DNA of 64,000 nt, from NCBI RefSeq assembly GCF_001640025.1, contig NC_031673.1, positions 868,001-932,000 on the forward strand, in the 5' to 3' direction. Under the pieces are notes generated by a model. It was given only the letters and a program-made list of their open reading frames with translations, was not told the DNA's origin and made no database searches. Origin of the DNA: Sugiyamaella lignohabitans (Eukaryota > Ascomycota > Dipodascomycetes > Dipodascales > Trichomonascaceae). This document shows, piece by piece, positions 1,377 to 63,073 of this stretch. The first letter of the stretch is position 1; every line of letters begins with the position of its first letter. The position numbers and the translations under genes were made by a program.

Positions 1377-1516
1377 TGCCTCCGGCTGCTGGGGCTCTGC
1401 CCCAGACCCCGTGGCTCCTCTCGCTTCGCTCGAGTCGGTTCCGTCTCGGGTCCCAGCCAACTCCTGCGAAGCAGGAGCAATCAGGGTCTGGGGCGGAGCC
1501 CCGGCCGCCGGAGGCA
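1377..1516. repeat. GC element, two-arm copy
   Basis: Two inverted ~60-base arms around a GGTTCC/GGGTCCC centre in the divergent UTP11 promoter. The arm ends read TGCCTCCGG and CCGGAGGCA. The left arm has the TCGCTTCGCTCGA hairpin, the right arm CTCCTGCGAAGCAGGAG. Confidence 0.95.
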
Positions 1517-1639
1517 GGACCCCCCCTGACGACGCAGGGCTCGGTGATGCGGCGGAACTGTCGATCAAAATAAATTTATTTGGCTGATCTGTGGAGAGGG
1601 AAGTGGACAACAGCAGTTTTATTTATTTATAGAGACAAA

Positions 1640-2392
1640 ATGGTGGCGTTGACTCATAATATCGCCAAGAAACAGCATCGGGAACGTGCCCAACCGACCG
1701 AGAGACGCAAATGGGGTCTGCTGGAGAAGAAGAAGGACTATAAACTGCGGTCGCAGGACTTTCATAAGAAAGAGAACCATCTTAAGCTGCTGCGGAGAAA
1801 AGCCACTGAACGCAATCCAGATGAATTCTATCACTCTATGGTCAATAAAAAGACCGACAACAGAGGCATTTTAATAACTGAGCGAGGAAACGAAGTTTTA
1901 AGCAATGGAGCAGCCCAGCTGCTGAAAACACAAGACTCAAGCTACGTCCGAACGCTGACGAGCGGCGAAATCCGCAAAATCGAGAAGTTAGAAACCGAAC
2001 TCACATTTGGCGGTCAAGGAGAACACACTGTATTTGTCGACTCGGACTCTCAAGCCAAATCTTTTGATGCTGCCGAGTATTTCGGGACCCATAAATCGCT
2101 GCTCAACCGACGTGAGAACAGACTACGGAAAAACCAGCTCGAAGAACAGGATCTCTCTAAAACCACTCTAATTCCTACCGATGTCGACGAGCGAACAGAA
2201 CAGAAACTGAGAAAACAGAAAATGGCTAAATACAAAGAGCTCGACCAGCGACTGGAACGTCAACAGCAGCTGTCACAAGTCCAGCAGCAAATGGATTTAC
2301 AAAGAGAGCTCATGAAAAAGGGCGACAAAAAGAAAATCATCACCAAAGACGGCAAACAAACCTGGAAATGGAAAAATGTCCGCAAACGTTAA
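1640..2392 (+). CDS. UTP11: U3 snoRNP (SSU processome) protein Utp11
   Basis: The 250-residue protein is the length of yeast Utp11, a component of the small-subunit processome that supports 18S rRNA maturation in the nucleolus. It opens MVALTHNIAKKQHRERAQP, the family's invariant KKQHRER entry, and contains NPDEFYHSM, LLKTQDSSYVRTL and HTVFVDS blocks. It ends in the basic tail typical of the family (WKWKNVRKR). The ATG at 1640 was chosen because it aligns with the family start; the frame is open further upstream, but only from non-ATG codons within spacer. Highly charged and helical throughout, with no membrane segment. It is convergent with MRPL31, and a full GC element lies 52 bp after the stop codon. 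Confidence 0.95.
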   Translation: MVALTHNIAKKQHRERAQPTERRKWGLLEKKKDYKLRSQDFHKKENHLKLLRRKATERNPDEFYHSMVNKKTDNRGILITERGNEVLSNGAAQLLKTQDSSYVRTLTSGEIRKIEKLETELTFGGQGEHTVFVDSDSQAKSFDAAEYFGTHKSLLNRRENRLRKNQLEEQDLSKTTLIPTDVDERTEQKLRKQKMAKYKELDQRLERQQQLSQVQQQMDLQRELMKKGDKKKIITKDGKQTWKWKNVRKR

Positions 2393-2443
2393 CTGCATCT
2401 TATTATTTAATTTTCATCTTTTTAAACCTCCTGGGTCCCTCTC

Positions 2444-2583
2444 TGCCTCCGGCGGCTGGGGCTACGCCCCAGACCCCGCTGCTCCTCTCGCTGCGCTCGA
2501 GTCGGTCCCGTCGACGGTCCCAGCCATCTCCTGCGAAGCAGGAGCAACCAGGGTCTGGGGCGGAGCCCCAGCCGCCGGAGGCA
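2444..2583. repeat. GC element, two-arm copy
   Basis: Well-preserved copy between the convergent UTP11 and MRPL31 stop codons; centre GGTCCCGTCGACGGTCCC is a near-perfect palindrome. Confidence 0.97.
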
Positions 2584-2651
2584 GCACCGGGAAAACGTGT
2601 GTGTACGGTGTCGTTATGCTATATACAAAATAATAATAGGAAACCAGGCGG

Positions 2652-3202: not shown

Positions 3203-3341
3203 TGCCTCCGGCGGCTGGGGCTCCGCCCCAGACCCCGCGGCTCCTCTCGCTGCGCTCGAGTCGTTTCCGTCGACGTCCCCGCCATCTCCTGCGAAGCAGG
3301 AGCAACCAGGGTCTGGGGCGGAGCCCCAGCCGCCGGAGGCA
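3203..3341. repeat. GC element, two-arm copy
   Basis: Two-arm copy between MRPL31 and HAS1, 102 bp after the HAS1 stop codon. Confidence 0.97.
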
Positions 3342-5332: not shown

Positions 5333-5376
5333 GGTTCTCACTTCTTCAGACAACAGTGAACCCTACAAAAACAAAA

Positions 5377-5542: not shown

Positions 5543-5599
5543 TGCCTCCGGCGGCTGGGGCTCCGCCCCAGACCCTGGTTGCTCCTGCTTCGCAGGAGA
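5543..5599 (+). repeat. GC element, single arm
   Basis: Left-oriented arm with the CTCCTGCTTCGCAGGAG hairpin, 175 bp from an inverted partner at 5775. Confidence 0.93.
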
Positions 5600-5774
5600 T
5601 TTCTGGGACCGTTTGGCGAGCAGGTCCGGGAATGGGGTGTGGGAGAGGGAATCAGAGGTCGTTTCAGCGCCGAAAAAAGCGGCAGATTTGGGTCATTTAC
5701 GGCCGATTTTTGGCCAGGACACCTGGAATTTTGAGGCTGAACCCCCCGAAATTGGCCTCCGAACCTCCGAGAAA

Positions 5775-5835
5775 CGACTCGAGCGCAGCGAGAGGAGCAG
5801 CGGGGTCTGGGGCGCAGCCCCAGCCGCCGGAGGCA
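5775..5835 (-). repeat. GC element, single arm
   Basis: Right-oriented arm with the GAGCGCAGCGAGAGG hairpin and GGCGCAGCCCC core; may be the far half of the 5543 copy with inserted DNA. Confidence 0.93.
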
Positions 5836-6000: not shown

Positions 6001-9000
6001 ATGCTGCTGAGTAGGGTGGCAAGAGTCAGGGCTGCCGTGGACGGGGTTTTTATTGGCTGTTATGGCAGAGCAGGATCACGTTCTGTGAGGTTTAACAGCC
6101 GGACCCAGGAAGTCCATATCAGGACTTGGAAGAGCCCTCGAAGCGTGCTCGTTTCGCCAAAATCGTGTCTAGATCTCAAACTGGTACGTTTTTCGAGCAC
6201 AGTTTCAGCTGCTGATGACGTGAATGGAGATGGTTTAAAAGATCAGACAGAATTAAGACCCCATGGATCAAGTCAAGATAAGTCTCGAGAGGACCCAGAA
6301 GAACTGAAAGAAGACCTTGATTCCAGAAAATTAAATTCAGAACTAATACATACGAGACTGAAAACTTCCAGGTTTTCTAAGCATTCAGAGAAGAATCTAG
6401 AATTAGAAGACCTGACTACTGACCGTCAGTTAGGAGACACAACAACCAAGTCAGAAACAGAACATCTAGAGGAACTAGAACTGGAAAAAGAAGAAGAATT
6501 AGACTCAGCGATATACGTGCCTCGACCACCTCGAGAAGCATTTAAGATTCTGGCACATGACTCTCCCAATTCCCCTGGCAAGAGCGTGCCCAAATACAGG
6601 CAGCTGAGCAAACAGCAGCAGTTTCTGCGGTATATGGGTCGTCACAAACTGATCCGAGAAATACTCGGTAATGTCTTCAAAGAATCCAATGCCTCGTTCG
6701 AGCAAAAAGTGCAAAAAGAAGCCATCGATATAGAGACAGTCAGTGCAAGAACATTGCTAGAACTAAGACTTGAATACACCAAAGAGGCCATGAAGACCCA
6801 TTTTGATAGAAAAAGTGTTAAACTCTTTAGACGGCTGTCAAGCAAAACACATCCCCGTTGGGAACCATCAAAAAACTCGAAACCGTCGAGTGCCATCGAC
6901 CAGTTCTGGTCTGAAATGATCTCAGCCCGAACAAGAGCTGAAGAATCCAACGAGCCCGTCGAGCCCTGGGCCGAATGGAAAGATTACGTCAACCTATCGC
7001 ATGACCCTCCAGTGATTCCTGATCTACTCCGCATGGAAAAAGCGCTCGACCAGTACTCACGAACACTCATCTCCGACCAAAACAACATTAAAATCGTCCA
7101 CCTCGCGACAACCGAAATGCTCTGCCGGTCCTTCGCCAAGTATCTGGCATACCAGGTCTCTCTCAACAGCCAGTACAGTCTAGAATCACCCACGCCAACA
7201 GAACTGGCATCAGCGTACGTACGGGGAGCACATACCTCCGGCGGCTGGGGCTCCGCCCCAGACCCTGGTTGCTCCTGCTTCGCAGGAGATGTCGGGGACC
7301 GTCGAAGGAAACGACTCGAGCGCAGCGAGAGGAGCAACGGGGTCTGGGGCGGAGCCCCAGCCGCCGGAGGCAGCACCTCCAGAAAGAAAATTACTAACAG
7401 TGAACAGAACACCAGCTGAGGAAACAGTTGAGGTCCCGACTATGTCGCCGGCGTTGGGGATTATTGATTTAGAGAACCCGGCGTGGCTGTTTCCGGCTGC
7501 CAGGATGATTCATAGGAAGGTGTATTTGCATATTGGACCCACGAATAGTGGAAAGACGTATACCGCGTTGAGAGCTTTTCAGACGGCCAAGTCTGGGTTT
7601 TACGCCGGGCCACTGAGACTGCTGGCTCGCGAGGTGTATAGTAGGATGAAGTCGGCGAGGATTCCGTGTAATTTGGTGACGGGTGAAGAGGTTATTGAGG
7701 AGTTCGACGAGACTGGACGGCCAGCTGGACTGTGTAGTGGTACTGTAGAGATGATGGATATCAACAGACAGATGGATGTTGCAGTGTTGGATGAGATCCA
7801 GATGATTGATGACGCCGAGAGAGGGTGGGCGTGGACCCAGGCGTTTTTGGCGGTGCAAGCCAGGGAGATTCATCTCTGTGGTGATCCTAATACTGAGGAG
7901 CTGGTAAGAAAACTGGCAGCACAGGCTGGTGATGAGCTCGAGGTTGTTAATTATACACGACTCAGTCCGCTTGAAATCGAGAAGCGAGAGTTGGGTGACG
8001 ACTTGCAGAAATTACAGCCTGGTGATTGTCTTGTATTCTTCTCGAAAAGACACATTCTGGCTGCTAAGAACATTATTGAGGCCGAGACTGGTGATAAATG
8101 TGCTGTAATTTACGGATCATTACCAGCCGAGACAAGATCTAAACAGGCTGAGCTGTTTAATGATCCAGACAGCGATGTTAAATACCTGGTGGCCAGTGAT
8201 GCTATTGGTATGGGACTGAACTTGGCAGTAAGAAGAATCATTTTTTCTCGAGTACGCAAGTTTAATGGCCATGAACTCATCAAACTTCCAATTGCACAAG
8301 TAAAGCAGATTGCTGGTCGTGCTGGTAGGTTTCAAACAGCTCCGTCTAAAGATTCTCGTGACACTCGATCAACTGGTAATGTCGGTTATGTAACATCGTT
8401 GCATGCTCATGATAGAGAGTACATTGAACAATGTCTAGCATTGCCATCACCTCCAGTTAAACAGGCAGCGTTCTTCCCTTCGGACACTATTATTCAAGAG
8501 TTTGCACACTTTATTGGTCCACAGAGTCCGTACCATCAGATGCTGGCGCGACTGGAAGCGTCTATCAAACTACCTCCACTATACAAGTTTGTAGATTTGT
8601 CCAACATGATCACCACATCCAAGATATTTGCCAATATTCGAGGATTGCTGTTAGAAGAGATGATGACACTGGCAAAAGCGCCAGTCAGTTCGACAGACGA
8701 ACGAGTCAAGAGCGCGTTCTACTCCTTCTGTTTAGTAATTGCCAACGGCCAGTCGAAAACTATTACCGAGATCCCTAATACAGGAGTAGGATACCTTGGT
8801 ATGTCAGTGATTCCAAACGCAAGACCCTCTGACACTTTCGAAAGCATTCACCGCGTTTTGTCGCTCTATTTATGGCTGTCGTACCGGTTCCCCACCCACT
8901 TCCTCGACCGTACAGGAGCCATGCAACTGAAAGAGCTCTGCGAAACCAAAATCAACGACCTCCTTAAGAAATCACCCTCCATCAGCCGGATCGTGGGTCG

Positions 9001-9174: not shown

Positions 9175-9324
9175 TGCCTCCGGCGGCTGGGGCTCCGCCC
9201 CAGACCCCGCTGCTCCTCTCGCTCCGCTCGAGTCGTTTCCGCCGATGGTCCCCACGGTCCCCGCCAACTCCTGCGAAGCAGGAGCAACCAGGGTCTGGGG
9301 CGGAGCCCCAGCCGCCGGAGGCCA
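9175..9324. repeat. GC element, two-arm copy
   Basis: 54 bp after the SUV3 stop codon, with a slightly enlarged centre. Confidence 0.96.
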
Positions 9325-11001: not shown

Positions 11002-11140
11002 TGCCTCCGGCGGCTGGGGCTCCGCCCCAGACCCTGGTTGCTCCTGCTTCGCAGGAGATGGCTGCGACCCTCGACGTAACGACTCGAGCGGAGCGAGAGG
11101 AGCCACGGGGTCTGGGGCAGAGCCCCAGCCGCCGGAGGCA
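11002..11140. repeat. GC element, two-arm copy
   Basis: Shared by the convergent ARP2 and alpha-actinin 3' ends (44 and 34 bp from the stop codons). Confidence 0.97.
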
Positions 11141-16249: not shown

Positions 16250-17375
16250 ATGCGATTCAAGGCGACTATTCACAATGCGGATGTGTTTCGAAGTAAGTAT
16301 ACGGGAATCCAGCTGAACCATATTCTACTACCACTGACAGTCTCCACCATCCTAGACACTCCGCTTCGTCTCCAACGATCCTAGACGCTCCGCGAAGCGG
16401 AGCACCACGGGGTCTGGGGCGGAGCCCCAGCCGCCGGAGGCAAACGGGGCCACAAATATGTTACAAACCAGTCCAGTAACAGTCAGGAAGTGCTAACGAG
16501 ATTCAATTGCAGATATTTGTGGCGCATTGGCGACGTTGAGGAAGGTATGTCAGATGCATCTTTCGCCCACCGAGCTCCGTCTGGTGTCTCTCGTCGACAA
16601 AAGCAGTACTCAGCTGTGGAGTATTCACCCTGTGGAGCTGATGTTTGATGACTACGTGGTTGTATCGAACGACGAGAACACGATAATTCTCGAACTGAAC
16701 ATCGATACCATGTACCGAGCGATACGGTCGTTTGATACTGGTGGACGAGGGATCGGATCGATTTCCCTGAAACTCAGAAGACAGAACAAAACGCCACTCT
16801 TACGAGTCAGTTTTGAACAGTCCATGGGAATTGGAGATAGTACATATGTCCAGCATGAATTTCCTGTCAGATTAGTCCGAGTTGACGAACGAAAAGCCAT
16901 AGAAGAACCGCAATGTCCACCGCCAGACCTCTACCTCGAACTGCCAAACGCACTGAGTGAAATTAACCGAGTCATTGACAAGTTTAAAGCACTAGGAACA
17001 CATGTTCGGATCCGAGTCAACAAACTCGGCCACATCTCTTTCGAAGTTCATGGTGACGGTCTACGAGTCGAATCAACATTCAAGTACGGGAAAGTCGTGC
17101 TCGCAGTTGACGACGAAAACAATACCACTCAACCACCAGAACTCGAACAAGACCCGTATTCCAACGAGCCAGCCAACGACCCCTCTGTAACAGTCATGCT
17201 CAAAGACCTGTCCAACGTGCTCCGAATCACCACCGTCGTCAAACGAATCGTGGTCGGCGTCTGCAACGAGTACGCCCTTATCCTCTACTGCTACCTCGAC
17301 CGCGATCCGGACAAACACGACGATTCCGGCGACGAAGAGGTGCTCACGTATTATATGAGCCACTTCGACGTATAA
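16250..17375 (+). CDS. HUS1: Checkpoint clamp (9-1-1) subunit Hus1/Mec3, two exons
   Basis: Exon 1 (16250-16292) and exon 2 (16513-17375) give 301 residues starting MRFKATIHNADVFRNICGAL, the conserved entry of Hus1. With Rad9 and Rad1, Hus1 forms the PCNA-like ring loaded at damaged DNA to activate the checkpoint kinase. Further family features are LSPTELRLVSL, PCNA-like beta-strand alternation and LKDLSNVLRITTVVKRIVVG near the end. The 220-base intron has donor GTAAGT, branch GCTAAC and acceptor TTGCAG, and holds a single GC-element arm (16377-16442). A frame starting at 16527 inside exon 2 would lack the conserved N-terminus. HUS1 is convergent with SER1. Confidence 0.9.
16377..16442 (-). 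repeat. GC element, single arm in HUS1 intron
   Basis: Right-type arm with the variant hairpin CTCCGCGAAGCGGAG; upstream of the branch site. Confidence 0.92.
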
Positions 17376-17391: not shown

Positions 17392-17455
17392 TGCCTCCGG
17401 CGGCTGGGGCTCCGCCCCAGACCCCGCTGCTCCTCTCGCTTCGCTCGAGTCGGGC
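17392..17455 (+). repeat. GC element, single arm
   Basis: 17 bp after the HUS1 stop codon, the shortest stop-to-element distance in the window. Confidence 0.95.
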
Positions 17456-17534
17456 GTCGGGGTGTCCAGTTCGCTCGGACGGCACAAGTATTTATTTGCA
17501 GACTGTTCTATGTGTTTTTTTACACGGTATTTAT

Positions 17535-19040: not shown

Positions 19041-19102
19041 TGCCTCCGGCGGCTGGGGCTCCGCCCCAGACCCTGGTTGCTCCTCTCGCTGCGCTCGAGT
19101 CG
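19041..19102 (+). repeat. GC element, single arm
   Basis: Left-type arm facing an inverted arm about 220 bp away in the SER1-DPH3 spacer. Confidence 0.94.
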
Positions 19103-19323
19103 GGCGTGGGGAGCCTCTGCTGGCGATTTGTCGGGTTTTGGACGGGTCAGGGGGGCTGTGTGGAGCTCTGTGTGCGTCTTTTTTTCTCCCAAATCACGCA
19201 CGGATCGCTCTATTTTGGTTCAAGGGAGACCCTGGTTCGATGAGCGATAAAGCTTTTAAATTGCGAAAGAGTTGGTCGAAACACACACCAGCGAGCTAAA
19301 TCACACGTTTCTGGGACCCGTAC

Positions 19324-19388
19324 GCCCGACTCGAGCGGAGCGAGAGGAGCAACCAGGGTCTGGGGCGGAGCCCCAGCCGCCGGAGGCA
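19324..19388 (-). repeat. GC element, single arm
   Basis: Inverted partner of the 19041 arm. Confidence 0.94.
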
Positions 19389-19673: not shown

Positions 19674-19813
19674 TGCCTCCGGCGGCTGGGGCTCCGCCCC
19701 AGACCCTGGCTGTTCCTCTCGCTGCGCTCGAGTCGTTACGTCGACGGTCCCTGCCATCTCCTGCGAAGCAGGAGCAACCAGGGTCTGGGGCGGAGCCCCA
19801 GCCGCCGGAGGCA
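19674..19813. repeat. GC element, two-arm copy
   Basis: Full copy 250 bp beyond the DPH3 stop codon. Confidence 0.97.
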
Positions 19814-20610: not shown

Positions 20611-21755
20611 ATGGAATCCAATGGCGGGCTTGTGAGCCTGAAAGAGCTTCGTCGGCGGAAAGAAGAGGCCAAACGGCTAGCGGCTGGCGGGGTAAATGTT
20701 CCAACCGAGGAAATAAAACCTGCTGAAGAAGCTACAAACAGCCAGGACCGCTCGACATCGAGTCCAGCTGCTAGTACTGACTCTGGTGAGAGGAAGCGAG
20801 AATTAACATCTGATAATAGTACTATTACTACAACTAAATCCAGATTCAAGAAGAGGAAACAGGTATTTTCCAAGTTATCATTTGCTAATGACGAAGACGA
20901 AGAAGACGACAACGAGCGTGACAATGGACCCTCGCGGCCTGTATCCAAGCTGAAGCGTGACCCTACTATAGACACATCGAATCTCAAAACAAAAAAACAG
21001 ATCCTGAAAGACCGTGAACTGCTGAACAAGGAAAAAAACTCTGAAGCTCAAAAACATGCCATTATCAGAGAACAGGTAGTCAACTTCCCGTTTGTATATT
21101 ATGACGGCTCCGAAACAGCCAGCTTTGTCGAGATCAAAAAAGGCGATCCTGTATGGATGATTCTCGAAAAGACCCGTAAAGGATTCAAAAAGTTTCATCG
21201 TGGCACTGTTGACGATATCATGCTCGTCAAACACAACGTCATCATTCCACATGTAAGTCCACCTCCTCTGCTCCTTCACCACACCTCAATCTACTCACTT
21301 AACCTTTTTTACTAACCGTATCACAGCACCTGGATCTCTACCGATTCCATCTCCAAAAAACCATGACCAGAATGGGTCCTCTCTTCGACCTGGATCACCT
21401 CGACTCTGAACCCCAGTCCTCGACCAAAGTCGTCCACCGTCCTTGGTACGAGCAGCACAAACTCATGTATCCATGCATGCTCTGGCAAGAGTACGATCCC
21501 ACTGTCGACGTAAGTGTTTGCCTCCGGCGGCCGGGGCGCTGCCCCGGACCCCGCTGCTCCTCTCGCTACGCTCGAGTCGGGCTTCGGCACCCCTGTGAGC
21601 GTAGAATTTTGGGGGAGATAAATTGCTAACATGAGCAGTATGAGAAGCTGGTCGATAGAGATAGATACGGCAATGTCCTTTATAGAAAGTCGAATGGCAG
21701 ACAGGAGAGGTCGGCTTCAGTCGAAACAGACTCGAAGTCCGAGAAAGCTGACTGA
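20611..21755 (+). CDS. xap5: XAP5/FAM50 family nuclear protein, three exons
   Basis: Exons 20611-21252, 21327-21509 and 21639-21755 give 313 residues. The first third is Lys/Glu/Ser-rich; the XAP5 domain follows (NFPFVYYDGSETASFVEIKK, VWMILEKTRKGFKKFHRGTV, DDIMLVKHNVIIPHHLDLYR, YEKLVDRDRYGNVLYRK). FAM50/XAP5 proteins are nuclear and linked to spliceosome function. Intron 1 is 74 bases (donor GTAAGT, branch TACTAAC, acceptor TCACAG); intron 2 is 129 bases (donor GTAAGT, branch GCTAAC, acceptor AGCAG) and holds a diverged GC-element arm. Both introns are phase 0. The ATG at 20611 is the first of the frame. Confidence 0.9.
21519..21582 (+). repeat. GC element, single arm in XAP5 intron 2
   Basis: Diverged core (CCGGGGCGCTGCCCCGG) with compensating changes on both sides of the hairpin, so the fold is kept. 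Confidence 0.93.
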
Positions 21756-21864
21756 TGATTATCAGAGTTCAACTAGCATGCAAAAACCAGACAAAATCTC
21801 ACGATCACTCCACCGTCTTCGTACTACTCCCCCTACCGAGTCGAGAAACCACACGGTCCAAGCA

Positions 21865-21913
21865 ACGAGCGAAGCGAGCCACGGGTCTGGGCGGAGCCCA
21901 GCCGCCGGAGGCA
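21865..21913 (-). repeat. GC element, diverged single arm
   Basis: Shortened core TGGGCGGAGCCCA; one base lost on each side of the stem, keeping pairing. Between XAP5 and BUD23 stop codons. Confidence 0.9.
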
Positions 21914-22764: not shown

Positions 22765-23340
22765 CTTCTACCTCTCAAATTAAACTTTTCTCTCTGATCC
22801 AAATCTACACTATAAAAAAAATATTTCAACCAACATCCGGACATGCATGAAAAAAAACCCACATCCCGCCACCGCGGCTACCCCCTGAATCCAGGGGTCC
22901 TCCTCCTCACACCCGGGCTCCTGAACCTAGGGACTAGAACGGGAACGGGTATGCCTCCGGCGGCTGGGGCTCCGCCCCAGACCCTGGTAGCTCCTCTCGC
23001 TGCGCTCGAGTCGTTTCCCCGACGGTCCCCGCCATCTCCTGCGAAGCAGGTGCAACCAGGGTCTGGGGCGGAGCCCCAGCCGCCGGAGGCACACCCCCCA
23101 CCCCGTGAACCCAACTCCAGGTCCCGTGGACCGAGTGTGTAGAAGTGGTTGGCTGCAGGGGGTATGCAGGGCGGGCCCTGCGTCATGCAGTGGCCCGAAT
23201 GGGCGGTTTGTTTACGTGGGATGCGTCTGGATGCAGGAATATTTGGCTGTTTGTGGCGTGCAGACAGGTTTGTTGTAGAGACAGTGAAGAAGGAATAAGT
23301 GTTTTTATTTGATTGAGTGAAAAAAAGTTAATAATTCAGC
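22765..23340. other. BUD23-orphan divergent spacer
   Basis: 576 bp holding one full GC element (22952-23091); no gene is seen. Confidence 0.5.
22952..23091. repeat. GC element, two-arm copy
   Basis: In the divergent BUD23/orphan spacer. Confidence 0.97.
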
Positions 23341-24017: not shown

Positions 24018-24082
24018 TGCCTCCGGCGGCTGGGGCTCCGCCCCAGACCCTGGTTGCTCCTCTCGCTTCGCTCGAGTCGGGC
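24018..24082 (+). repeat. GC element, single arm
   Basis: First of three arms clustered between the orphan and VMA4 stop codons, 30 bp after the orphan. Confidence 0.95.
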
Positions 24083-24123
24083 GTCTCGTTCCCCTTAAAT
24101 AATAACTCCTGTTTCCCGGCGCT

Positions 24124-24185
24124 CGACTCGAGCGAAGCGAGAGGAGCAACCAGGGTCTGGGGCGGAGCCCCAGCCGCCGGAGGCA
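24124..24185 (-). repeat. GC element, single arm
   Basis: Second of the three clustered arms; inverted to the first. Confidence 0.95.
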
Positions 24186-24203
24186 TGTTTTCCCCCGACG
24201 CCC

Positions 24204-24265
24204 CGACTCGAGCGAAGCGAGAGGAGCAGCCAGGGTCTGGGGCGGAGCCCCAGCCGCCGGAGGCA
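24204..24265 (-). repeat. GC element, single arm
   Basis: Third arm, a near-identical direct repeat of the second 19 bases later; 67 bp from the VMA4 stop codon. Confidence 0.95.
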
Positions 24266-25030: not shown

Positions 25031-25273
25031 CTGCTCTTTGTTAGTGGTTTATTGGGGTGAGGGGCGTGCCTCCGGCGGCTGGGGCTCCGCCCCAGACCCT
25101 GGTTGCTCCTCGAGCGAAGCTCGAGGAGTTACGGGGGGTTGATGGAGGGAGCTGGGGGACTGGAGGGGAGAAATGCCGTGGGTGAGGACGGTGAGGTGGG
25201 GTTTTTTTGGAGGTTTGTGAAAGAATGGGGGTCTGGGGTTGATTGTGGATGCCATTGAGGGTGTACACTTACG
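25031..25273 (-). other. Predicted 5'UTR intron of VMA4
   Basis: The minus strand shows GTAAGTG at 25273, CACTAAC at about 25046-25040 and AGCAG ending at 25031, the same grammar as the coding introns of this window. A GC arm (25067-25131) lies between donor and branch. It is predicted from sequence signals only. Confidence 0.6.
25067..25131 (+). repeat. GC element, single arm in VMA4 leader intron
   Basis: Carries an unusual perfect hairpin CTCGAGCGAAGCTCGAG in place of the usual two types. Confidence 0.95.
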
Positions 25274-25361
25274 TCAATGGGATTGGTTCAGGCTCGTTGG
25301 CGTGGTTGGTTCGACAAGGAGATATGTGAAGTGCACGATAGCGACCGATGCTGGAAGTTCA

Positions 25362-25385
25362 AGGCCAATCATCCAGCCAATGCTT
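25362..25385. promoter_or_regulatory. Paired CCAAT boxes upstream of VMA4
   Basis: Two CCAAT pentamers on the plus strand about 15 bp apart (ggCCAATc, agCCAATg), plus an inverse ATTGG near 25282, could bind the HAP/CBF complex. Weak evidence. Confidence 0.3.
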
Positions 25386-25447
25386 AAGCCGTACTAAGAG
25401 CATGCATCTCATCAGTTGGTGAGAACGAGGCGCGGCTGCTGGAAAAA

Positions 25448-25942
25448 TTAACGGTAGGGTAACAGCCCTGCTAGCCCCAGCGCTATTCCCCGTTCAAGGG
25501 CCTCTAGAAACTTAAAATTCAGCCACTGGACGGGTTCAAATTTAGTCAATTTTTAGAGAAAAAAAAAAGAGAGAATTGGCTATGAAAAGAAGCGCAAAAC
25601 CTGTTATCTTCTATTCACCCTGTACAACACCCCGGTAAGAGCGTATCGCAGGCATCAGTACTATACCGCAATTCAACTGAAAAATTGCCCTCCCCGGCCT
25701 CCACCAGCAGTTTAATGCCATTCCAGACCATCCCAGCGCCCATCCAGCTCCCCACGCCCGACTCGAGCGCAGCGAGAGGAGCAACCAGGGTCTGGGGCGG
25801 AGCCCCAGCCGCCGGAGGCAGACCCCCACCCTCTCCGTCACCACCACCCTTCTGAACCCCAAATCAAAAAAACCAAAACACATACCGTAACCAGGACCCC
25901 GTAAAGCACCATGTTGCCGAGTTTGAGTCCGATTGGAAACAT
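25448..25942 (-). CDS. Candidate short two-exon gene (uncertain)
   Basis: An ATG at 25942 in the good context CAAAATG opens MFPIGLKLGNMVLYGVLVT, a hydrophobic, membrane-like stretch, directly followed by a GTATGT donor at 25885. A GC arm (25758-25820) lies downstream, as inside confirmed introns. A possible acceptor at 25526 (weak branch GACTAAA) would add 25 residues, WLNFKFLEALERGIALGLAG then LLPYR and stop. No canonical CTAAC is present, and I recognise no family. It could be a small membrane protein or chance. Confidence 0.2.
25758..25820 (-). repeat. GC element, single arm
   Basis: Between VMA4 and the ZIP gene; would be intronic if the candidate short gene is real. Confidence 0.95.
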
Positions 25943-27923: not shown

Positions 27924-28061
27924 TGCCTCCGGCGGCTGGGGCGTTGCCCCAGACCCCGTGGCTCCTCTCGCTGCGCTCGAGTCGAGCGTCGGGATCCCCG
28001 GCAAATCTCGAGCGGAGCTCGAGCTACGGGGTCTGGGGCAGCGCCCCAGCCGCCGGAGGCA
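27924..28061. repeat. GC element, two-arm copy
   Basis: Directly follows the 27854 arm; core reads GGGGCGTTGCCCC / GGGGCAGCGCCCC on the two arms. Confidence 0.95.
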
Positions 28062-37805: not shown

Positions 37806-37946
37806 TGCCTCCGGCGGCTGGGGCTCCGCCCCAGACCCTGGTTGCTCCTCTCGCTCCGCTCGAGTCGTTACTGGGACCGTCGAGAAAACGACTCGAGCGA
37901 AGCGAGAGGAGCCACGGGTCCGGGCGGAGCCCGGCCGCCGGAGGCG
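37806..37946. repeat. GC element, two-arm copy
   Basis: 38 bp after the APL5 stop codon. Both arms carry the CTCGAGCGAAGCGAG-type hairpin; the right core is shortened to CGGGCGGAGCCCG. Confidence 0.95.
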
Positions 37947-39791: not shown

Positions 39792-39931
39792 TGCCTCCGG
39801 CGGCTGGGGCTCCGCCCCAGACCCTGGCTGCTCCTCTCGCTACGCTCGAGTCGTTCCGTCGACGGGCCCTGCCATCTCCTGCGAAGCAGGAGCAACCAGG
39901 GTCTGGGGCGGAGCCCCAGCCGCCGGAGGCA
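39792..39931. repeat. GC element, two-arm copy
   Basis: Between convergent RAD52 and GCD7 (42 and 45 bp from the stop codons). Confidence 0.97.
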
Positions 39932-39975: not shown

Positions 39976-41231
39976 CTATAGAGACACATCCTGGTTGCTG
40001 TAGTGGTCGAGGATGATTCGGTAGGTGAAACTGGGCGAGAACCCGCCGATGTTGGTCACGTAGATGTCGATGTGTTCGGGGGCCACGTAGTCGTACACGG
40101 GGTTCATGACGCCGATTTTATCCATGAGCCCTGTGTCGTTGAACCCGATGACTTTACCGGTATCGCCCACTTCAATCAGCTGGTCAATGTCAAAAGGATA
40201 CAATGGTGATAATTTGTATAGTCCGGTGACGGCCAGAACTGGCACTCGGTAGTCTTTAGCAGCTTCACATACAAGAGCCACGCCAGAAGATGAAACACAG
40301 CCACCGTTGGCAAGCACTGCTCGTGTGCCGATGATTACTTTACCAACTCGGCTCATGACAGCAGAAGTAGCAGTGTCGGGGATGATGACGGTGTGAATAC
40401 CGGCTTTTGACAGCGTCAGCGCGAACTCGTGTGAAGCGGTCACTTCGTTTGGAAATCCTTCTGTCACTAGAACTGTGAATGTACGTTTCTGGCTGGCTCG
40501 AAGGAGAAATTCCAGTACAGTTTTAGAATTGGGACTGGCGGTTAGCAGCACTTCGTTCTCGTGGATCATGTCTACACTCATGCCGGCAATCGAGTCGTCG
40601 ATATTACTAATTTCTTCAATAAGTTCCTGGATTCCTTCAATGATATCGGCTTTCGTATCTCTGTGTGCTTTACGAGCTTCTTCGTTGGTCAATGCTTTAG
40701 TTGGACTATTAGATGTTGCTGATGGATCAACTGATAGCAGTCCGAACATAGATGATGTAGAAAAGTCTAGAACTGTATCCAGTTGACTGTTGTTGTGACT
40801 GTGATGATGACCTGATGCAGTTCCTGTGCTATTTGTATTTCCTTCACCCACTTCACGAATCACTGCTAACACTCGTCGAACGACATTGCCAACTACAAAC
40901 TCCCGAGGTTGGGCCTGGATCAAACTCTTGCCAAGACTCCTGACGTCCTCAATCAGTTTGGAAATCTGGGTCCATTTCGATGCCGAAATATATCGCAGCA
41001 GCAAATGTCCACATGCCAGACCAACTGTCTTGGATCCGGTAATCTGTCTTCGTTTCAGTTGACTGGGTTTGTTAGAACGGGCATGCCTCCGGCGGCTGGG
41101 GCTCCGCCCCAGACCCTGGTTGCTCCTGCTTCGCAGGAGTTTTTTTCGGGGAGTTGAGTCACTTACGCTATGAATGTCGCCACTTGTGTGTGTATATCAC
41201 CCTTATGGTGAACAATGCCGGCTGATGACAT
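39976..41231 (-). CDS. GCD7: eIF2B beta subunit Gcd7, two exons
   Basis: Exon 1 (41231-41167) encodes MSSAGIVHHKGDIHTQVATF then I; exon 2 (41062-39976) starts within AQLKRRQITGSKTVG, recreating the conserved LKRRQ-x-x-GS. The 383-residue protein is the beta regulatory subunit of the eIF2 guanine exchange factor, which controls initiation and senses eIF2 phosphorylation. The IF2B core is intact: FTVLVTEGFPN, VIIPDTATSAVMSRVGKVII, GTRAVLANGGCVSSSGVALV, VAPEHIDIYVTNIGGFSPSF. The 104-base intron (41166-41063) has donor GTAAGT, branch TTCTAAC and acceptor CCCAG, and 57 of its bases are a GC-element arm. Confidence 0.95.
41084..41140 (+). repeat. GC element, single arm in GCD7 intron
   Basis: Occupies 57 of 104 intron bases between donor and branch. 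Confidence 0.97.
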
Positions 41232-42453: not shown

Positions 42454-43508
42454 ACTATGTAACCGTTGGTCAGCTATTTCGCAAATCGTCCTTATACTAT
42501 CTATCACTATTTATTAACGAGATTATTTATTGGTTAGTTTTTCTAGAACAGAACCGATTCAAGAGCTGTAATCTGGCAGGTAGCGATTATGCATTTTGTT
42601 TGATACATGTTTCATCGAAAATGCAAAAATGCGAAACTGCCAAGCTTCTGGCAAGATACTTATATAATAAAAGAACGAGTTGTATCTCGGTAGTCAACAC
42701 CACGATCCAAGCAATCTCCTGGGAAGCAGGAGCCACGGGGTCTGGGGCGGAGCCCCAGCCGCCGGAGGCAGTCAGACACCCCTGTAATTATATCCCATCA
42801 GACCCAGTTCCTCCGTGTGGGGTACCTGCAGGTGAGACAGAAGAGATTGCAAAGTACCGTCATTCCATTCGTCCTATGCGCATGCCAATTCAAGGTTTGT
42901 ATCGAACGGTTTGAAAGTTGATCCCTGAACGCGGGGTAATATTTTAACCGCGACGGAATATCTTTCTCGAGCGTATTCACTTTTTCAGCAAGTTAAAGCC
43001 GGATTTAAACTATAAGCTGTGCGGTATCAGTCAGGCGGGGTTTGATATAAAATGGAATGATCAGTAACTTTGTTTATGATTTCTCCAGGCTCGCCAATTA
43101 ATATTAAGCGCCTGTTTTGAATGTCCCCAGGTTTTGAATTTTCATCTCGACCGAAATCGCTCGTGGATAAAATGTTTAAGTGGAATAGGGTTGAAGGAGA
43201 AACGGAGACCAGCGAGGCACCAACAGCTGATCTTATCAGAAGTTCATGAAGATCTGGAGATCGATAGCAATCGCTTCTCAAACAAGATAAACCCCCACCA
43301 TGATCAAAGTCAGAATAGAGTTCTGATTTGCAATTGCGGGGTCAAGTCCTTTCGTTTGATAACTCTATTTATGCAGATAAATATAGCCTCAGATGACCTG
43401 GTTTAGTTTCTGGTCTCTATTAATCCGTAAAGGAGTTTTGAAGCTGGGATAGTCGAGTAATCCAATTTTTTTTTTTTGATAATATAGAACAGGTCTTCTC
43501 AGGGTATA
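42454..43508. other. Spacer upstream of JEN1-like permease
   Basis: About 1.05 kb, with a single GC arm at 42714-42770 and otherwise AT-rich sequence including a T run at about 43467-43480. No gene is seen. Confidence 0.5.
42714..42770 (-). repeat. GC element, single arm
   Basis: 261 bp after the SDE2 stop codon; the CTCCTGGGAAGCAGGAG hairpin has one mismatch. Confidence 0.93.
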
Positions 43509-46261: not shown

Positions 46262-46323
46262 CGACTCGAGCGAAGCGAGAGGAGGCAACGGGGTCTGGGG
46301 CAGAGCCCCAGCCGCCGGAGGCA
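46262..46323 (-). repeat. GC element, single arm
   Basis: Between convergent TRM9 and PRP8 (85 and 52 bp from the stop codons). Confidence 0.95.
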
Positions 46324-54257: not shown

Positions 54258-54320
54258 TGCCTCCGGCGGCTGGGGCTCCGCCCCAGACCCCGCTGCTCCT
54301 CTCGCTTTGCTCGAGTCGGG
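54258..54320 (+). repeat. GC element, single arm
   Basis: Intact arm in the PRP8/orphan divergent spacer. Confidence 0.94.
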
Positions 54321-54661
54321 CGTGGGGATTCCCACTGGTCTGAAAATCTCGGAGTTGGGTAAGTTCTGACCAGCCAGTGGAACTCCTGGAGGAGGTAAAG
54401 AGATTCGAAATTTGCTGAGAGACTGGCTCGAGTCTTTGATCTAAGGACTGTGGGTCGAAACACTAATAGTTGAGAATGCAATGGACTGAAATCAATGCTC
54501 TTAAACACCCCCCCCCTGAGTGCCGATGATGCAGTTGGATGTGCGGCGTCTGAGCCCTTGCATATGAGTCCGCATGAGAACTGATGAGAGGATATGCGGG
54601 GCGGGAAGTGAGGTTCTCGGCAAGGTTCATTTGCTATATATTTTTTGGTTCCGAGCGAAAA

Positions 54662-57868: not shown

Positions 57869-58260
57869 TAAACCTTACTTTTGGCTTTTGGGTGGCACTG
57901 CCTCCGGCGGCTGGGGCTCCGCCCCAGACCCCGCTGCTCCTCTCGCTTCGCTCGAGTCGGGCGTCGGCCGTCGTGGCATCGCACAGGGTCCCTGAAAAAC
58001 ACAGGGACCGTGGGGAGAACGACTCGAGCGAAGCGAGAGGAGCAGCGGGGTCTGGGGCGGAGCCCCAGCCGCCGGAGGCAGCGAGGGTACACGAATGAGA
58101 TCAAATAAAATAAGATAAAATAAAATAATAATAGCGAACACAGGAGAGATGCAAGGGTGTGTTCGGGTGAAATGAATGTGGTGCCAGTGGGCGGATTAAG
58201 GGACGGTGATGCGGTCTAGAGAGGGTGTCTAGAGTATGTATTAGTGGCGAGAATGGGGTG
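57869..58260. other. Convergent spacer of orphan and STS1
   Basis: 392 bp with one two-arm GC element (57899-58080) beginning 31 bp after the orphan's stop codon; otherwise nothing seen. Confidence 0.6.
57899..58080. repeat. GC element, two-arm copy with long centre
   Basis: 31 bp after the orphan's stop codon. The centre contains its own hairpin (CAGGGTCCCTG and CAGGGACC). Confidence 0.95.
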
Positions 58261-59914: not shown

Positions 59915-60054
59915 GCGCCTCCGGCGGCTGGGGCTCCGCCCCAGACCCTGGTTGCTCCTGCTTCGCAGGAGTTGCTGGGCCCGTCGACGGAAACGACTCG
60001 AGCGGAGCGAGAGGAGCAGTGGGGTTTGGGGCGTAGCCCCAGCCGCCGGAGGCA
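59915..60054. repeat. GC element, two-arm copy
   Basis: In the STS1/THS1 divergent spacer; the right core is altered to GGGGCGTAGCCCC. Confidence 0.95.
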
Positions 60055-60385
60055 GACCCCCTCCCCGACAGGGGGTATTGGGTTAGGGTTAGTGACGCAG
60101 GGTCCAGTCCGGTGGAGTGGAGGTGTAGGGTCCTGAAGAGGTTGGTTACAAGTTTGTGTGAAGGTTTTTCGGATTTAAGAGAACAGGGTGTGTGAGGATG
60201 GAGTTGGAAGTGAGAAGAGCCCGGGTTGGTGGAGTTTGGGGCTGTGTGGATGCAGTTTAGCAGGTTTATAAGTAGAGTTTGTGAGGGGAATGGGTCGGTT
60301 GATTGGTGGTGTGATGATGGCGTTCCTATTTTGGGATAGGATGGGTGAGTTTAGGGAAAGAGAGGAGTCATTTGACGACTCAGAC

Positions 60386-60392
60386 TGAGTCA
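60386..60392. promoter_or_regulatory. Gcn4/AP-1-type site TGAGTCA upstream of THS1
   Basis: A perfect TGAGTCA about 200 bp upstream of the ATG, with GAGTCA at 60365-60370 and TGACTC at 60457-60462. Three bZIP-type sites in 100 bp before an aminoacyl-tRNA synthetase gene suggest general amino-acid control; motif evidence only. Confidence 0.45.
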
Positions 60393-60587
60393 CTGGTTGC
60401 ATTCCAGGGAAATGGATCGCTTCAGCGCCGTTGTTGCCCTGCATATTTCCCCTGACTGACTCTTTGCACCGCCGCACGCCGTGCATGGAATCACGGTGAG
60501 TGACACATTTTCGATTTTTCAGATCACCGCTATTTAATCTCGTCAGCTCGCATCTGCTCTAGCGACAATATCGACTCTGCAATAACA

Positions 60588-62895
60588 ATGGCTGCTGCTG
60601 GTGTTTCAGAACTCATTGAAAAGGTGGCTGATGCTACCATTGCCCCTAAAAAGGGCCCTCCTGCTTTATATCCTGTAAGTGGCTTTTGATTGAGTGAGGA
60701 AGGGGGGAGGGGTGCTGCCTCCGGCGGCTGGGGCTTCGCCCCAGACCCCGTGGCTCCTGCTTCGCAGGAGTTTGCTGGGACCGTGATCGGGGGGAATGGA
60801 ATATGGGGCGAAGGGATGCTAACTGTGGAAATAGGCCGAGCCAAAGTTCTCGTTTATTGACGAGCGTTTGAAGTTCTTCGACGAGCTGAAGAAGGCTCAG
60901 GATGAGGAGATCGCCAAGAAAGAGAGAAAACCTATTAAAATCACGTTGAAGGATGGTTCTGTTAGAGAGGGAACTGCTTGGGAAACCAGTCCTGCTGATA
61001 TTGCTAAGGAGATCAGCAAGTCGCTATTCGAGAAGACTGTCATTTCTAAGGTCAATGGTGAATTATGGGATTTAGAGAGACCCTTTGAGGAGGATTCTAA
61101 GCTTGAATTATTGGATTTCGACAGTGAGGATGGTAAAAAGGTCTTCTGGCACTCGTCTGCCCACGTTTTGGGTGAGGCTTGTGAATGCCATTTCGGTGCT
61201 CATTTGTGCGTTGGTCCTCCTACTGACGATGGTTTCTTCTATGAAATGAGCATTGATAACGGTGACAGAGCTGTTTCTAGTGCTGATTTCCCTGCTGTTG
61301 AAGCTGTCACTAAACGTGCTGTTAAGGATAAGCAGAGATTCGAGAGATTGGTCGTTTCGAAGGAAAACCTTCTTAAGATGTTTGCTTACAACAAGTACAA
61401 GCAGACTCTGATTCAGTCCAAGATTCCTGATGGAACTTCTTCTACTGTTTACAGATGTGGTCCTTTGATCGATTTGTGTCGTGGACCTCACGTTCCTCAT
61501 ACTGGTAGAATTAAGAGCATTAAGTTGTTGAAGAACTCTGCTTCTTACTTTTTGGGTGACTCTGCTAACGACTCTTTGCAAAGAATCTACGGAGTTTCTT
61601 TCCCTGATAAGAAGCAGTTGGATGAGCATCTCAAGTTCTTAGAAGAGGCTGCCAAACGTGATCACCGTAAGATTGGTAAGGACCAGGAATTGTTTATGTT
61701 CCATGATATGTCTCCAGGAAGTTGTTTCTGGTTGCCTCATGGTGCCCGTATCTACAACACTTTGGGCGACTTCCTCCGTACCGAGTATAGAAAACGTGGT
61801 TATGAAGAGGTCATTACCCCTAATATGTACAACGCCAAGCTGTGGGAGACTTCTGGCCACTGGGCTAATTACAAGGAAAATATGTTCACTTTTGATGTTG
61901 AGAAGGAGAAGTTTGGTCTTAAACCCATGAACTGTCCTGGTCACTGTCTTATGTTCAAGGCTCGTGAAAGAAGTTATCGAGAGTTGCCCTGGAGAGTCGC
62001 TGATTTCGGTGTTATCCACAGAAACGAGTTTTCCGGTGCTTTGTCCGGTTTGACTCGTGTGCGTCGTTTCCAACAGGATGACGCCCATATCTTCTGTCGT
62101 CAAGATCAAATCGAGGCCGAGATTACCGGTATTTTCGAGTTCTTGAAACATGTTTACGGAGTATTTGGCTTTGATTTCAAGATGGAGTTGTCTACCCGAC
62201 CTGAGAAGTATGTTGGTCAACTCGAGACCTGGAACGATGCCGAGGCTAAACTTGCCAGTGCTCTTGACTCTTGGGGTGCTAAATGGGAGCTCAACCCTGG
62301 TGATGGTGCTTTCTACGGACCCAAGATTGATATCATGATCTCGGATGCTCTCAAGCGTTGGCACCAGTGTGCCACCATCCAGTTGGATTTCCAACTTCCC
62401 GACCGTTTCGGACTGCAATTCCGTGGTGCTGATGTCACTGATGCTGCTGGCGAGGTGCAACACTACGACCGTCCTGTCATGATCCACCGTGCACTGTACG
62501 GATCCTTCGAGCGTATGATTGCCATTCTCACCGAGCACTTCTTCGGTAAGTGGCCCCTATGGCTTTCTCCCCGTCAAGTTCTCGTTGTCCCTGTCGGTGT
62601 CAAGTACTTCGACTACGCCCAAAAGGTGCGAGACTACTTCCACGAGAACGGCTTCTTCGCCGACGTCGACGTCGGTCCCAACACCCTGCAAAAGAAGGTC
62701 CGTCAAGGCCAGCTCCAGCAATACAACTACCTCCTCGTTGTCGGAGAAGAAGAAGAGTCTTCTAACACCGTCAACATCCGTAAGAGAGACGACCCCTCTA
62801 AACACGGCAAGACCGAGACTGTCTCTCTCGAGGACGCTGTTGCCAAGATGAAGCAGCTCGTCGCCAGCAAGAGCCTCGTTGATAACGTCTTTTAA
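60588..62895 (+). CDS. THS1: Cytosolic threonyl-tRNA synthetase Ths1, two exons
   Basis: Exon 1 (60588-60674) encodes [20 protein letters not shown] onward; exon 2 (60835-62895) continues [20 protein letters not shown]. The 715-residue enzyme charges tRNA-Thr. It has an N-terminal TGS domain ([19 protein letters not shown]), an editing domain with [12 protein letters not shown], the class II core with motif 2 ([20 protein letters not shown] then [10 protein letters not shown]), motif 3 ([20 protein letters not shown]) and an anticodon-binding domain ([20 protein letters not shown]). The start lacks a mitochondrial presequence. Codon use is strongly biased, as expected for a highly expressed gene. 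The 160-base intron (donor GTAAGT, branch TGCTAAC, acceptor AATAG) holds one GC arm. Confidence 0.97.
60715..60783 (+). repeat. GC element, arm plus centre in THS1 intron
   Basis: Keeps TGCTGGGACCGT of the centre, so likely a truncated two-arm copy. Confidence 0.95.
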
Positions 62896-62935
62896 ACTAT
62901 AATAATACACTGTTAATCAATTCTCTGGGGGCACA

Positions 62936-63073
62936 TGCCTCCGGCGGCTGAGGCTCCGCCCCAGACCCTGGTTGCTCCTGCTTCGCAGGAGTTGCTGGGA
63001 CCGTAGACGTAACGACTCGAGCGGAGCGAGAGGAGCAGCGGGGTCTGGGGCGGAGCCCCAGTTGCCGGAGGCA
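62936..63073. repeat. GC element, two-arm copy
   Basis: Between convergent THS1 and the WD40 gene (41 and 47 bp from the stop codons). Confidence 0.97.

What the first reader, a model, noticed from the sequence alone, without database searches (positions are those of the whole stretch)
1377..63073. Very dense family of nested-palindrome GC elements
I count 43 insertions (17 two-arm, 26 single-arm) in 64 kb, about one per 1.5 kb. Each arm starts TGCCTCCGGCGGC, has an inner TGGGGCTCCGCCCCA hairpin and an outer hairpin of one of two main types (CTCCTGCTTCGCAGGAG or CTCTCGCTTCGCTCGAG). Two-arm copies are inverted around a GGGACCGTCGACGGTCCC-like centre and usually pair one hairpin type with the other, which gives an otherwise symmetric element a direction. 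No coding capacity, poly-A or transposase is visible. It resembles in style the GC clusters of fungal and algal organelle genomes, here spread through nuclear DNA. Mechanism unknown.
Basis: seen in the sequence. Interest (0 to 1): 0.85.

Follow-up and report, generated by a model that had tools for sequence, protein, structure and literature searches.

The report
GC hairpin repeats with mutation halo
A yeast's nuclear genome carries thousands of short, GC-rich, hairpin-forming DNA pieces that often sit just past the ends of coding stretches, and the DNA for about 300 bases around them is skewed on one strand, as if inserting or keeping the piece rewrote its neighbours.

Summary
The window has 60 arms: 15 two-arm palindromes (about 140 bp) and 30 single arms by my cutoffs. 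The 15.9-Mb, 4-contig genome (fits the yeast Sugiyamaella lignohabitans; inferred) holds 3,044 exact copies of the 28-nt arm start. Hairpin stems are conserved while loops vary. Two-arm copies pair hairpin type A with B in 54 of 55 A/B-typed cases. They show no target-site duplication of 1-8 bp and are too short to encode a transposase.

New here, from 364 kb: (1) elements start 30-70 bp after stop codons (31 of 65 gene ends; 9.6 expected) and are enriched in introns; (2) the ~12 nt before the outer ends are on average G-rich on the arm strand; (3) a strand-asymmetric halo: at fourfold sites within 250 bp, G on the strand running away from the element is 0.47 (0.19 after shifting elements), A and T roughly halve, C is unchanged. 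Pooled over element-bearing introns, polarity switches between upstream and downstream exons.

Best model: insertion as a patch in repair of resected breaks, with G-biased error-prone synthesis. Inferred, not shown. Nearest in style: mitochondrial GC clusters and double-hairpin elements.

The parts
1377..1516 (.). two-arm element (B/A), between divergent genes
2444..2583 (.). two-arm element (B/A), 51 nt after the stop ending at 2392
3203..3341 (.). two-arm element (B/A)
7233..7372 (.). two-arm element (A/B) filling most of an intron of the Suv3-like helicase gene
7215..7407 (+). spliceosomal intron (GTACGT ... ACTAAC ... CAG) that holds the element; exons in phase
9175..9323 (.). two-arm element (B/A), 53 nt after the stop ending at 9121
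11002..11140 (.). two-arm element (A/B) between the stops of convergent frames (10958 and 11174)
19674..19813 (.). two-arm element (B/A)
22952..23091 (.). two-arm element (B/A), between divergent frames
27924..28061 (.). two-arm element; the script types it B/B, but the right hairpin is the perfect CTCGAGC/GCTCGAG (C) form; single arms on both sides (27854+, 28162+)
30360..30500 (.). two-arm element (A/B) with altered centre
34362..34500 (.). two-arm element (B/A) lying between facing single arms 34050+ and 34852-
37806..37946 (.). two-arm element whose right arm has a shortened inner hairpin
39792..39931 (.). two-arm element (B/A) between convergent stops 39750 and 39976 (Rad52-like and IF-2B-like genes)
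59916..60054 (.). two-arm element (A/B)
62936..63073 (.). two-arm element (A/B) between convergent stops 62895 and 63120
5543..5835 (.). facing single arms A (5543+) and B (5835-) with about 170 bp between them
17392..17456 (+). single B arm 16 nt after a stop codon
17603..17733 (-). 131-nt intron of the class-V aminotransferase gene, holding a single B arm (arm end 17712)
19041..19388 (.). facing single B arms (19041+, 19388-)
24018..24265 (.). three single B arms (24018+, 24185-, 24265-) between convergent stops
25067..25820 (.). facing single arms C (25067+) and B (25820-)
26324..26658 (.). facing single B arms; read by eye as lying inside one intron (GTGAGT near 26298, CTAAC...CAG near 26697), not in the scripted intron list
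32884..33066 (.). facing single arms A (32884+) and B (33066-)
57899..58080 (.). facing single B arms
21519..21913 (.). facing single arms (21519+ B, intron-like setting; 21913- with shortened hairpins)
16409..16442 (-). single D-type arm (outer 34 nt given)
41084..41145 (+). single A arm
42737..42770 (-). single A arm (outer 34 nt given)
46290..46323 (-). single B arm (outer 34 nt given), 51 nt after a stop codon
53839..53872 (-). single B arm in an intron-like setting (outer 34 nt given)
54258..54322 (+). single B arm
60716..60780 (+). single A arm in an intron-like setting

Best explanation
A nuclear family of short non-coding GC hairpin elements. The unit is a ~60-nt arm: TGCCTCCGGCGGC, a 6-bp hairpin, GACCC, then a second hairpin of type A, B or a rarer type. 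The commonest complete form is a ~140-bp palindrome of one A and one B arm. Inferred mechanism: copies are patched into broken, resected DNA, chiefly in non-coding stretches just past coding exons (3' ends of transcripts, starts of introns). The exposed 3' ends first gain a short G-rich tail (the ~12-nt G tract on the strand pointing into the element), then join the element without duplicating the target. The resected strands, which run outward, are refilled for about 300 bp by error-prone synthesis that puts G opposite A and T. One G-favouring polymerase would explain both the inward G tract and the outward G halo. Half-elements would be copies truncated or broken near the palindrome centre. 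Shown: anatomy, placement, no target duplication at two-arm copies, average G tract, halo and its polarity. Inferred: mobility, break repair, resection, the polymerase, and the order of events.
For: 3,044 exact arm starts. No direct repeat of 1-8 bp at the edges of 63 two-arm copies, and no excess in their 20-nt flanks (z -0.5). G is 0.45-0.64 at positions -12 to -3 of 249 outer flanks; GGGG in the last 12 nt in 117 of 249, against 2.8% of random 12-mers. At gene 3' ends: GGGG in the 14 nt before the element in 17 of 45 occupied ends; GGGG anywhere in +20..80 in 7% of 28 (dense) and 12% of 25 (sparse) element-free ends. As 43 of 78 dense-region gene ends are occupied at +20..120, pre-existing G tracts look too rare to be the sole target. 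Halo: outward G 0.471 at 1,684 fourfold sites within 250 bp; 500 shifts gave 0.194 +/- 0.010, maximum 0.230. A and T fall by about half, C unchanged, for genes reading toward and away; flank skew in convergent, divergent and tandem settings. Across element-bearing introns the pooled sense strand goes from C .41/G .24 (6 upstream exons) to C .16/G .32 (10 downstream exons); no switch across 4 element-free introns. Halo strongest next to intact arms (rho .22, P .001, 215 flanks), while the arms' own A and T positions are 0.90-0.99 conserved (arms were picked for matching, so this is biased upward). This fits a halo made when a fresh copy arrives.
Against: No empty site was seen, so insertion itself is not shown. 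The only related segment pair stops about 24 bp short of an arm, and its nearest 150 bp give only a weak signal (to G 13, from G 6; to C 6, from C 14). Left and right halo strengths of one element do not correlate (rho 0.01, 49 elements). Of 5 introns readable on both sides, only 3 show the switch individually; one single-arm intron has a G-rich upstream exon and one two-arm intron no G excess downstream. The inner side of single arms has a weak halo (G .31, 98 sites), and the few elements in sparse regions have less (G .31-.32, 119 sites). Single arms show a slight excess of direct similarity between their two sides (z 2.2; 11 of 123 share 7 bp or more, 7.6 expected), with one 9-bp repeat. 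One facing pair encloses a real exon, so facing pairs are not always two ends of one break. No polymerase was identified.
Confidence: 0.4

Rival explanations
1. Chronic fragile site: the element, once present, extrudes or stalls forks and breaks again and again; repeated resection and refilling slowly builds the halo, and half-elements are breakage products.
For: Two-arm copies fold far better than shuffles (z -9.9 and -12.2 as RNA; -10.1 as DNA). Single arms often end near the centre. Close pairs are nearly always heterotypic, i.e. imperfect palindromes, while 10 of 18 A/B-typed wide facing pairs are homotypic, as expected if perfect short-spacer palindromes are lost. Left and right halo strengths are uncorrelated.
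Against: Arms stay well conserved beside their own halo (with the bias that arms were picked for matching); the halo is weaker, not stronger, at degraded copies, although loss of structure could also stop the process. Exact B..B arms about 40 bp apart do exist (C4:264395-264576).
Confidence: 0.28
2. Target choice: elements insert where strand skew already switches (for example at hidden replication or transcription switch points); the halo precedes the element.
For: Placement is strongly non-random. No empty site is available to exclude it.
Against: Gene ends in the same regions with no element within 800 bp lack the skew (C 0.25 against 0.545 in the last 100 nt); 4 element-free introns lack the switch (small numbers); all gene contexts show it.
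Confidence: 0.11
3. Retrotransposed RNA hairpins moved by the genome's LINEs (target-primed reverse transcription), with truncated copies as single arms.
For: 7 of 13 reverse transcriptase hits have an APE-type endonuclease hit beside them on the same strand in a frame of the same length; alternative perfect stems; sites lie near gene ends.
Against: No target-site duplication at two-arm copies, no A or T tail in the flank composition, both ends alike.
Confidence: 0.12
4. Ordinary mutational pressure or codon usage at gene ends, or transcription-associated mutation, unrelated to the elements.
For: Elements are themselves near gene ends.
Against: Polarity follows the element, not transcription; gene ends without elements lack it; pooled exons switch across element-bearing introns; A and T fall about equally, which cytosine or adenine deamination alone would not give.
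Confidence: 0.03

Closest known systems
GC clusters of yeast mitochondrial DNA (e.g. GC42; PMC4478555, abstract and one section seen)
   Same: short, non-coding, GC-rich, palindromic, multi-copy; that paper suspects co-conversion tracts as footprints of insertion
   Different: nuclear here; no target-site duplication at two-arm copies (GC42 has putative AG duplications); two nested hairpins per arm; heterotypic two-arm form; halo polarity
Double-hairpin elements of fungal and algal mitochondrial DNA (features recalled; only listings seen)
   Same: two GC hairpins in tandem per unit, i.e. the arm
   Different: nuclear, paired head to head into a 140-bp palindrome, placed at gene ends and in introns
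Palindromic repeats of Volvox carteri (PMC2670323, passages seen)
   Same: organelle-type palindromes also present in nuclear DNA
   Different: there about 0.06% of nuclear DNA and judged inert organelle copies; here 6.1% of the dense sampled regions
Bacterial REP/BIME elements (recalled)
   Same: single and inverted-paired hairpin units in intergenic DNA
   Different: no Y1 transposase found; eukaryotic nucleus
MITEs and foldback elements (recalled)
   Same: inverted arms, non-coding, sometimes with other DNA between
   Different: no target-site duplication at two-arm copies; each arm is itself a double hairpin
Introner elements (recalled)
   Same: fill most of several introns
   Different: the splice sites found lie outside the element, and 12 of 186 elements have an intron signature

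Membership tests
Yeast mitochondrial GC clusters | located in mitochondrial DNA | tested here: not met
   on 4 contigs of about 2.3-5.9 Mb (C4 by subtraction), among conserved nuclear-type genes
Yeast mitochondrial GC clusters | 2-nt (AG) target-site duplication | tested here: not met
   any 2-nt direct repeat at the edges: 4 of 63, 5.1 expected
Double-hairpin elements | two adjacent GC hairpins as the unit | tested here: met
   the one A arm folded gives two hairpins, z -4.3; the one B arm folded is no better than shuffles, z -1.0; perfect second stems of several sequences
Double-hairpin elements | sequence relation to mitochondrial members | not testable with these tools
   no mitochondrial sequence of this or a related yeast held
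MITE / TIR transposon | target-site duplication | tested here: not met
   none at 63 two-arm copies; single arms show a slight excess of similarity, z 2.2
MITE / TIR transposon | related autonomous transposase in the genome | not tested
   only PF00078, PF14529, PF14214 and PF01797 were searched
REP / Y1 | Y1 transposase in the genome | tested here: not met
   0 hits; control rings in 5 of 14 genomes
Helitron | Helitron replicase | tested here: inconclusive
   0 hits, but the control was silent
SINE moved by LINE | target-site duplication and tail | tested here: not met
SINE moved by LINE | shared 3' end with a LINE | not testable with these tools
   LINE loci could not be fetched
Introner | element supplies the splice sites | tested here: inconclusive
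   the scan looked only for sites outside the element; joining there keeps the frame in 5 of 5 testable introns

The most novel reading that the evidence does not exclude
Each insertion of a short DNA hairpin rewrites about 300 bp of neighbouring host DNA, coding sequence included, through a G-favouring error-prone fill-in. A selfish repeat thus acts as a directed local mutator of the ends of many genes, and the strand polarity of the halo records how it was inserted.
Probability: 0.33. Interest if true: 0.92.

Novelty: new variant of a known kind. Interest (0 to 1): 0.78.

Why it matters
How GC clusters and similar organelle palindromes spread is an open question: PMC4478555 (section seen) leaves the mechanism undecided. 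Here the same style of element fills parts of a compact nuclear genome, at gene ends and in introns. If the halo is made at insertion it gives a footprint of the reaction (break, resection length, polymerase preference), makes the insertion pathway testable with strain pairs, and shows a route by which non-coding repeats change protein sequence next to them: codon positions 1+2 also shift, C 0.259 with an element near against 0.218 without, in the last 80 codons.

Tried and rejected
Target-site duplications: none at two-arm copies; a slight, unexplained excess at single arms. Facing single arms as one transposon with captured DNA: not a general reading, because one pair (17392/17712) encloses a real exon and wide pairs show no excess of A/B partners (8 of 18). 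Pairing of the G flank with the arm's GACCCC as a guide: dropped by eye, since TC and TG before TGCC are equally common (48 each of 249). Introner reading: not favoured. Codon-usage or transcription-bias reading of the halo: rejected. Rfam: only a tRNA in the window. Viral contigs: 0 exact 33-mer matches; genome contigs: 1 exact 30-mer match, in a Desulfovibrionaceae bin, not followed. A protein search with one element-spanning frame found nothing, uninformative. A related segment pair C1a/C3 was indecisive. Not all elements are clearly non-coding: 30 of 186 midpoints fall inside mechanical frames of at least 450 nt. Those frames look to me mostly spurious or intron-related, but true coding insertions were not excluded.

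Rows dropped before counts: arms matching fewer than 25 of 33 in the ungapped scan (on; in the window two such arms); in halo counts genes under 750 nt or overlapping an element by more than 20 bp; genes under 600 nt; genes of 1,200 nt or less (tables) or under 1,200 nt; two-arm copies without two clean flanks, and all in C2/C3; L026. Gene models are mechanical open frames, without curated introns. One search stopped half-way on a sorting error; its first two tables are used, the rest was redone.
Full report
What was checked. The window is G000:C4:868001-932000 of a 15,932,016-bp assembly in 4 contigs. Size and number fit Sugiyamaella lignohabitans CBS10342 (16.0 Mb, 4 chromosomes; table passage of PMC5499181). 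That naming is an inference; no tool named the genome. Three longer exact patterns (35, 33 and 24 hits) lie on all four contigs but unevenly: 32 of 92 on C1 (5.93 Mb), 17 on C2 (4.95 Mb), 17 on C3 (2.77 Mb), 26 on C4 (about 2.3 Mb). I read 364 kb: the window, 200 kb of C1, 50 kb of C2 and 50 kb of C3. Arms run at 0.7-1.1 per kb in the window and C1 samples ('dense') and 0.12 per kb in the C2 and C3 samples ('sparse'). The C1 stretches were chosen partly because one search showed them dense, so these densities are not a genome average.

Anatomy. The 364 kb gave 249 arms at my cutoff: 63 two-arm copies and 123 single arms. An arm is TGCCTCCGGCGGC, hairpin TGGGGC-NNN-GCCCCA, GACCC, and a second hairpin. 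Outside the first hairpin's loop, positions are 0.92-1.00 conserved; the three loop positions are 0.76-0.90 (arms were selected by similarity, which inflates all these values alike). The second hairpin occurs as perfect stems of several sequences: CTCCTGC/GCAGGAG (63 with loop TTC), GCTCCGC/GCGGAGC 8, CTCTTGC/GCAAGAG 7, GCTCGC/GCGAGC 7, CTCGAGC/GCTCGAG 2, CTCCCGC/GCGGGAG 1. Half-changed forms between CTCCTGC/GCAGGAG and CTCTTGC/GCAAGAG number 4. The common B type has two mismatched pairs in its stem. Structure thus seems maintained for the perfect types, by selection on a hairpin or by template-switch correction; the data do not say which. Two two-arm copies fold into one long hairpin, z -9.9 and -12.2 as RNA; one was also folded as DNA, z -10.1. 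Among 55 two-arm copies typed A or B, 54 are A with B, and the remaining one has a C-type hairpin on inspection; the best of 2,000 random re-pairings reached 40. Single arms often end close to the palindrome centre (by eye), so I read them as half-elements.

Where they sit. Of 65 gene ends that have an element before the next frame, 31 have it 30-70 bp after the stop, 9.6 expected for random placement in the same gaps; upstream of start codons there is no such peak. Within 120 bp of stops, the TGCC end of single arms faces the gene 20 to 5. In dense regions 43 of 78 gene 3' ends carry an element at +20..120, in sparse regions 2 of 28. The spacer is A/T-rich and turns G-rich near the element (G 0.27 at -14..-8, 0.46 at -8..-2; 36 ends). 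In 21 of 36 spacers an AT-rich motif ends a median 30 nt before the element, about where a cleavage site would be (inference). Twelve of 186 elements are flanked by a 5' splice site and a branch point/3' splice site, against 31 of 4,000 random non-coding sites. In all 5 cases with a unique open frame on both sides the exons are in phase. In a strict set of 10 introns, 4 contain an element (4 of 7 in dense regions, 0 of 3 in sparse ones). Ten neighbouring frames scanned all have Pfam matches (Suv3, Rad52, V-ATPase E, Cut8, class-V aminotransferase and others). Thirty of 186 element midpoints fall inside mechanical frames; I take most as spurious, untested.

Edges. The outer flank is on average G-rich on the arm strand from -14 to -3 (G 0.30-0.64), with GGGG in the last 12 nt in 117 and GGG in 169 of 249. 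Two-arm copies therefore show G-rich left and C-rich right flanks. At two-arm copies no direct repeat of 1-8 nt exceeds shuffled expectation, nor do inverted ones. Single arms have a slight excess of direct similarity between their two sides (z 2.2; 11 of 123 with 7 bp or more, 7.6 expected); shared G runs and one neighbouring-arm duplication account for some of these.

The halo. Beyond the G tract, the flanks are skewed the other way for 300-400 bp. At fourfold-degenerate third positions of neighbouring genes, G on the strand that runs away from the element is 0.48-0.49 within 200 bp, 0.42 at 200-300, 0.285 at 300-400, and 0.15-0.18 beyond 900 bp; A and T fall by about half, C stays near 0.16. 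Within 250 bp the value is 0.471 over 1,684 sites; 500 circular shifts of the elements gave 0.194 +/- 0.010, maximum 0.230. It holds for genes reading toward the element and away from it, and in the flanks of dense-region two-arm copies in convergent, divergent and tandem settings (outward skew 0.16, 0.21, 0.19; positive in 83 of 98 clean flanks). Gene ends in dense regions with no element within 800 bp lack it: C 0.25 (176 sites) against 0.545 (475 sites) in the last 100 nt; in sparse regions the same contrast is small (0.32 of 56 sites against 0.25 of 253). Across element-bearing introns the pooled sense strand goes from C .41/G .24 in 6 upstream exons to C .16/G .32 in 10 downstream exons. 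Of the 5 introns readable on both sides, 3 switch individually (window 7233, C1b 662, C1b 47483); C1b 38397 has C excess upstream but no G excess downstream; C1a 60512, a single arm, has G excess on both sides, perhaps because another element lies some 400 bp upstream. Four element-free introns with no element within 600 bp show no switch (small numbers). The halo is stronger next to intact arms (rho 0.22, P 0.001, 215 flanks). Against a tidy one-event reading: left and right strengths of one element are uncorrelated (rho 0.01, 49 elements), the inner side of single arms is weak (G 0.31, 98 sites), and the one related segment pair gave only a weak signal.

How it may work. Deamination cannot turn T into G, and GC-biased conversion would raise C as well as G. 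Synthesis that misplaces G opposite A and T on the strand running out from the element fits. That is the strand removed by 5' resection at a break and then refilled. The inward G tract next to the junction would be tail addition by a G-favouring polymerase at the 3' end of the other strand. So one model covers three otherwise separate facts: no target duplication, inward G tract, outward G halo. That arms keep their A and T positions while flanking silent sites are heavily changed, and that intact copies have the stronger halo, favours rewriting at insertion over slow build-up, but a chronic fragile-site model is not excluded. Neither insertion nor resection was observed. The genome holds LINE-type frames and no Y1 transposase hit; a link to LINEs is open because their ends could not be read.

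Comparison. The arm resembles the GC clusters and double-hairpin elements of organelle DNA, but membership fails for GC clusters on location and target duplication (of PMC4478555 I saw the abstract with introduction and the section on amplification mechanism). Volvox nuclear palindromes are rare and judged inert (passages of PMC2670323); here elements make up 6.1% of the dense sampled regions. Searches of the held library: four strings of the element's letters, 0 papers; Sugiyamaella lignohabitans with genome and repeat, 20 papers, listing only apart from passages of PMC5499181; Sugiyamaella with palindrom, 4 papers, listing only apart from the same passages, where palindromes concern mitochondrial DNA; nuclear palindromes and double-hairpin elements, listings; skew or flank mutations at breaks and insertions, listings only. 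The original genome paper (Bellasio et al. 2016) was not read, so prior mention there is not excluded.

Verdict. The family is real, nuclear and unusual; its halo, if confirmed with strains, would be new to my knowledge. Mechanism confidence is moderate to low; on recheck I lowered it slightly (0.42 to 0.40, novel case 0.35 to 0.33) because only 3 of 5 introns switch individually and single arms show a slight direct-repeat excess.

Noticed in passing
G000 C1:3056215, C3:656590, C3:703545, C1:3598344, C2:642216, C4:1331194, C4:11889: Seven LINE-type elements: reverse transcriptase and APE-type endonuclease hits side by side in open frames of 993-1,145 aa; two sets of three share identical reverse transcriptase scores.
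   Followed up: partly
G000 C1 beyond 3.8 Mb; C2 beyond 3.52 Mb: Few element copies in three exact-pattern samples: 3 of 32 C1 hits lie in its last 2.1 Mb and 0 of 17 C2 hits in its last 1.4 Mb; the cause is unknown.
   Followed up: partly
G000 C1:232677-236130 and C3:1012438-1015417: A repeated segment of about 3 kb, matching pieces at 78-85% identity, between a dense and a sparse region; nature not determined.
   Followed up: partly
window 28084, 33076, 34349, 60097: A second short motif, GCAGGGTCC, occurs 4 times near elements, 0.57 expected, 1 of 100 shuffles as high; may be another small repeat.
   Followed up: no
window 14712-14801: tRNA gene on the minus strand.
   Followed up: no
G000 C2: Contig length is exactly 4,950,000 bp, oddly round.
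   Followed up: no
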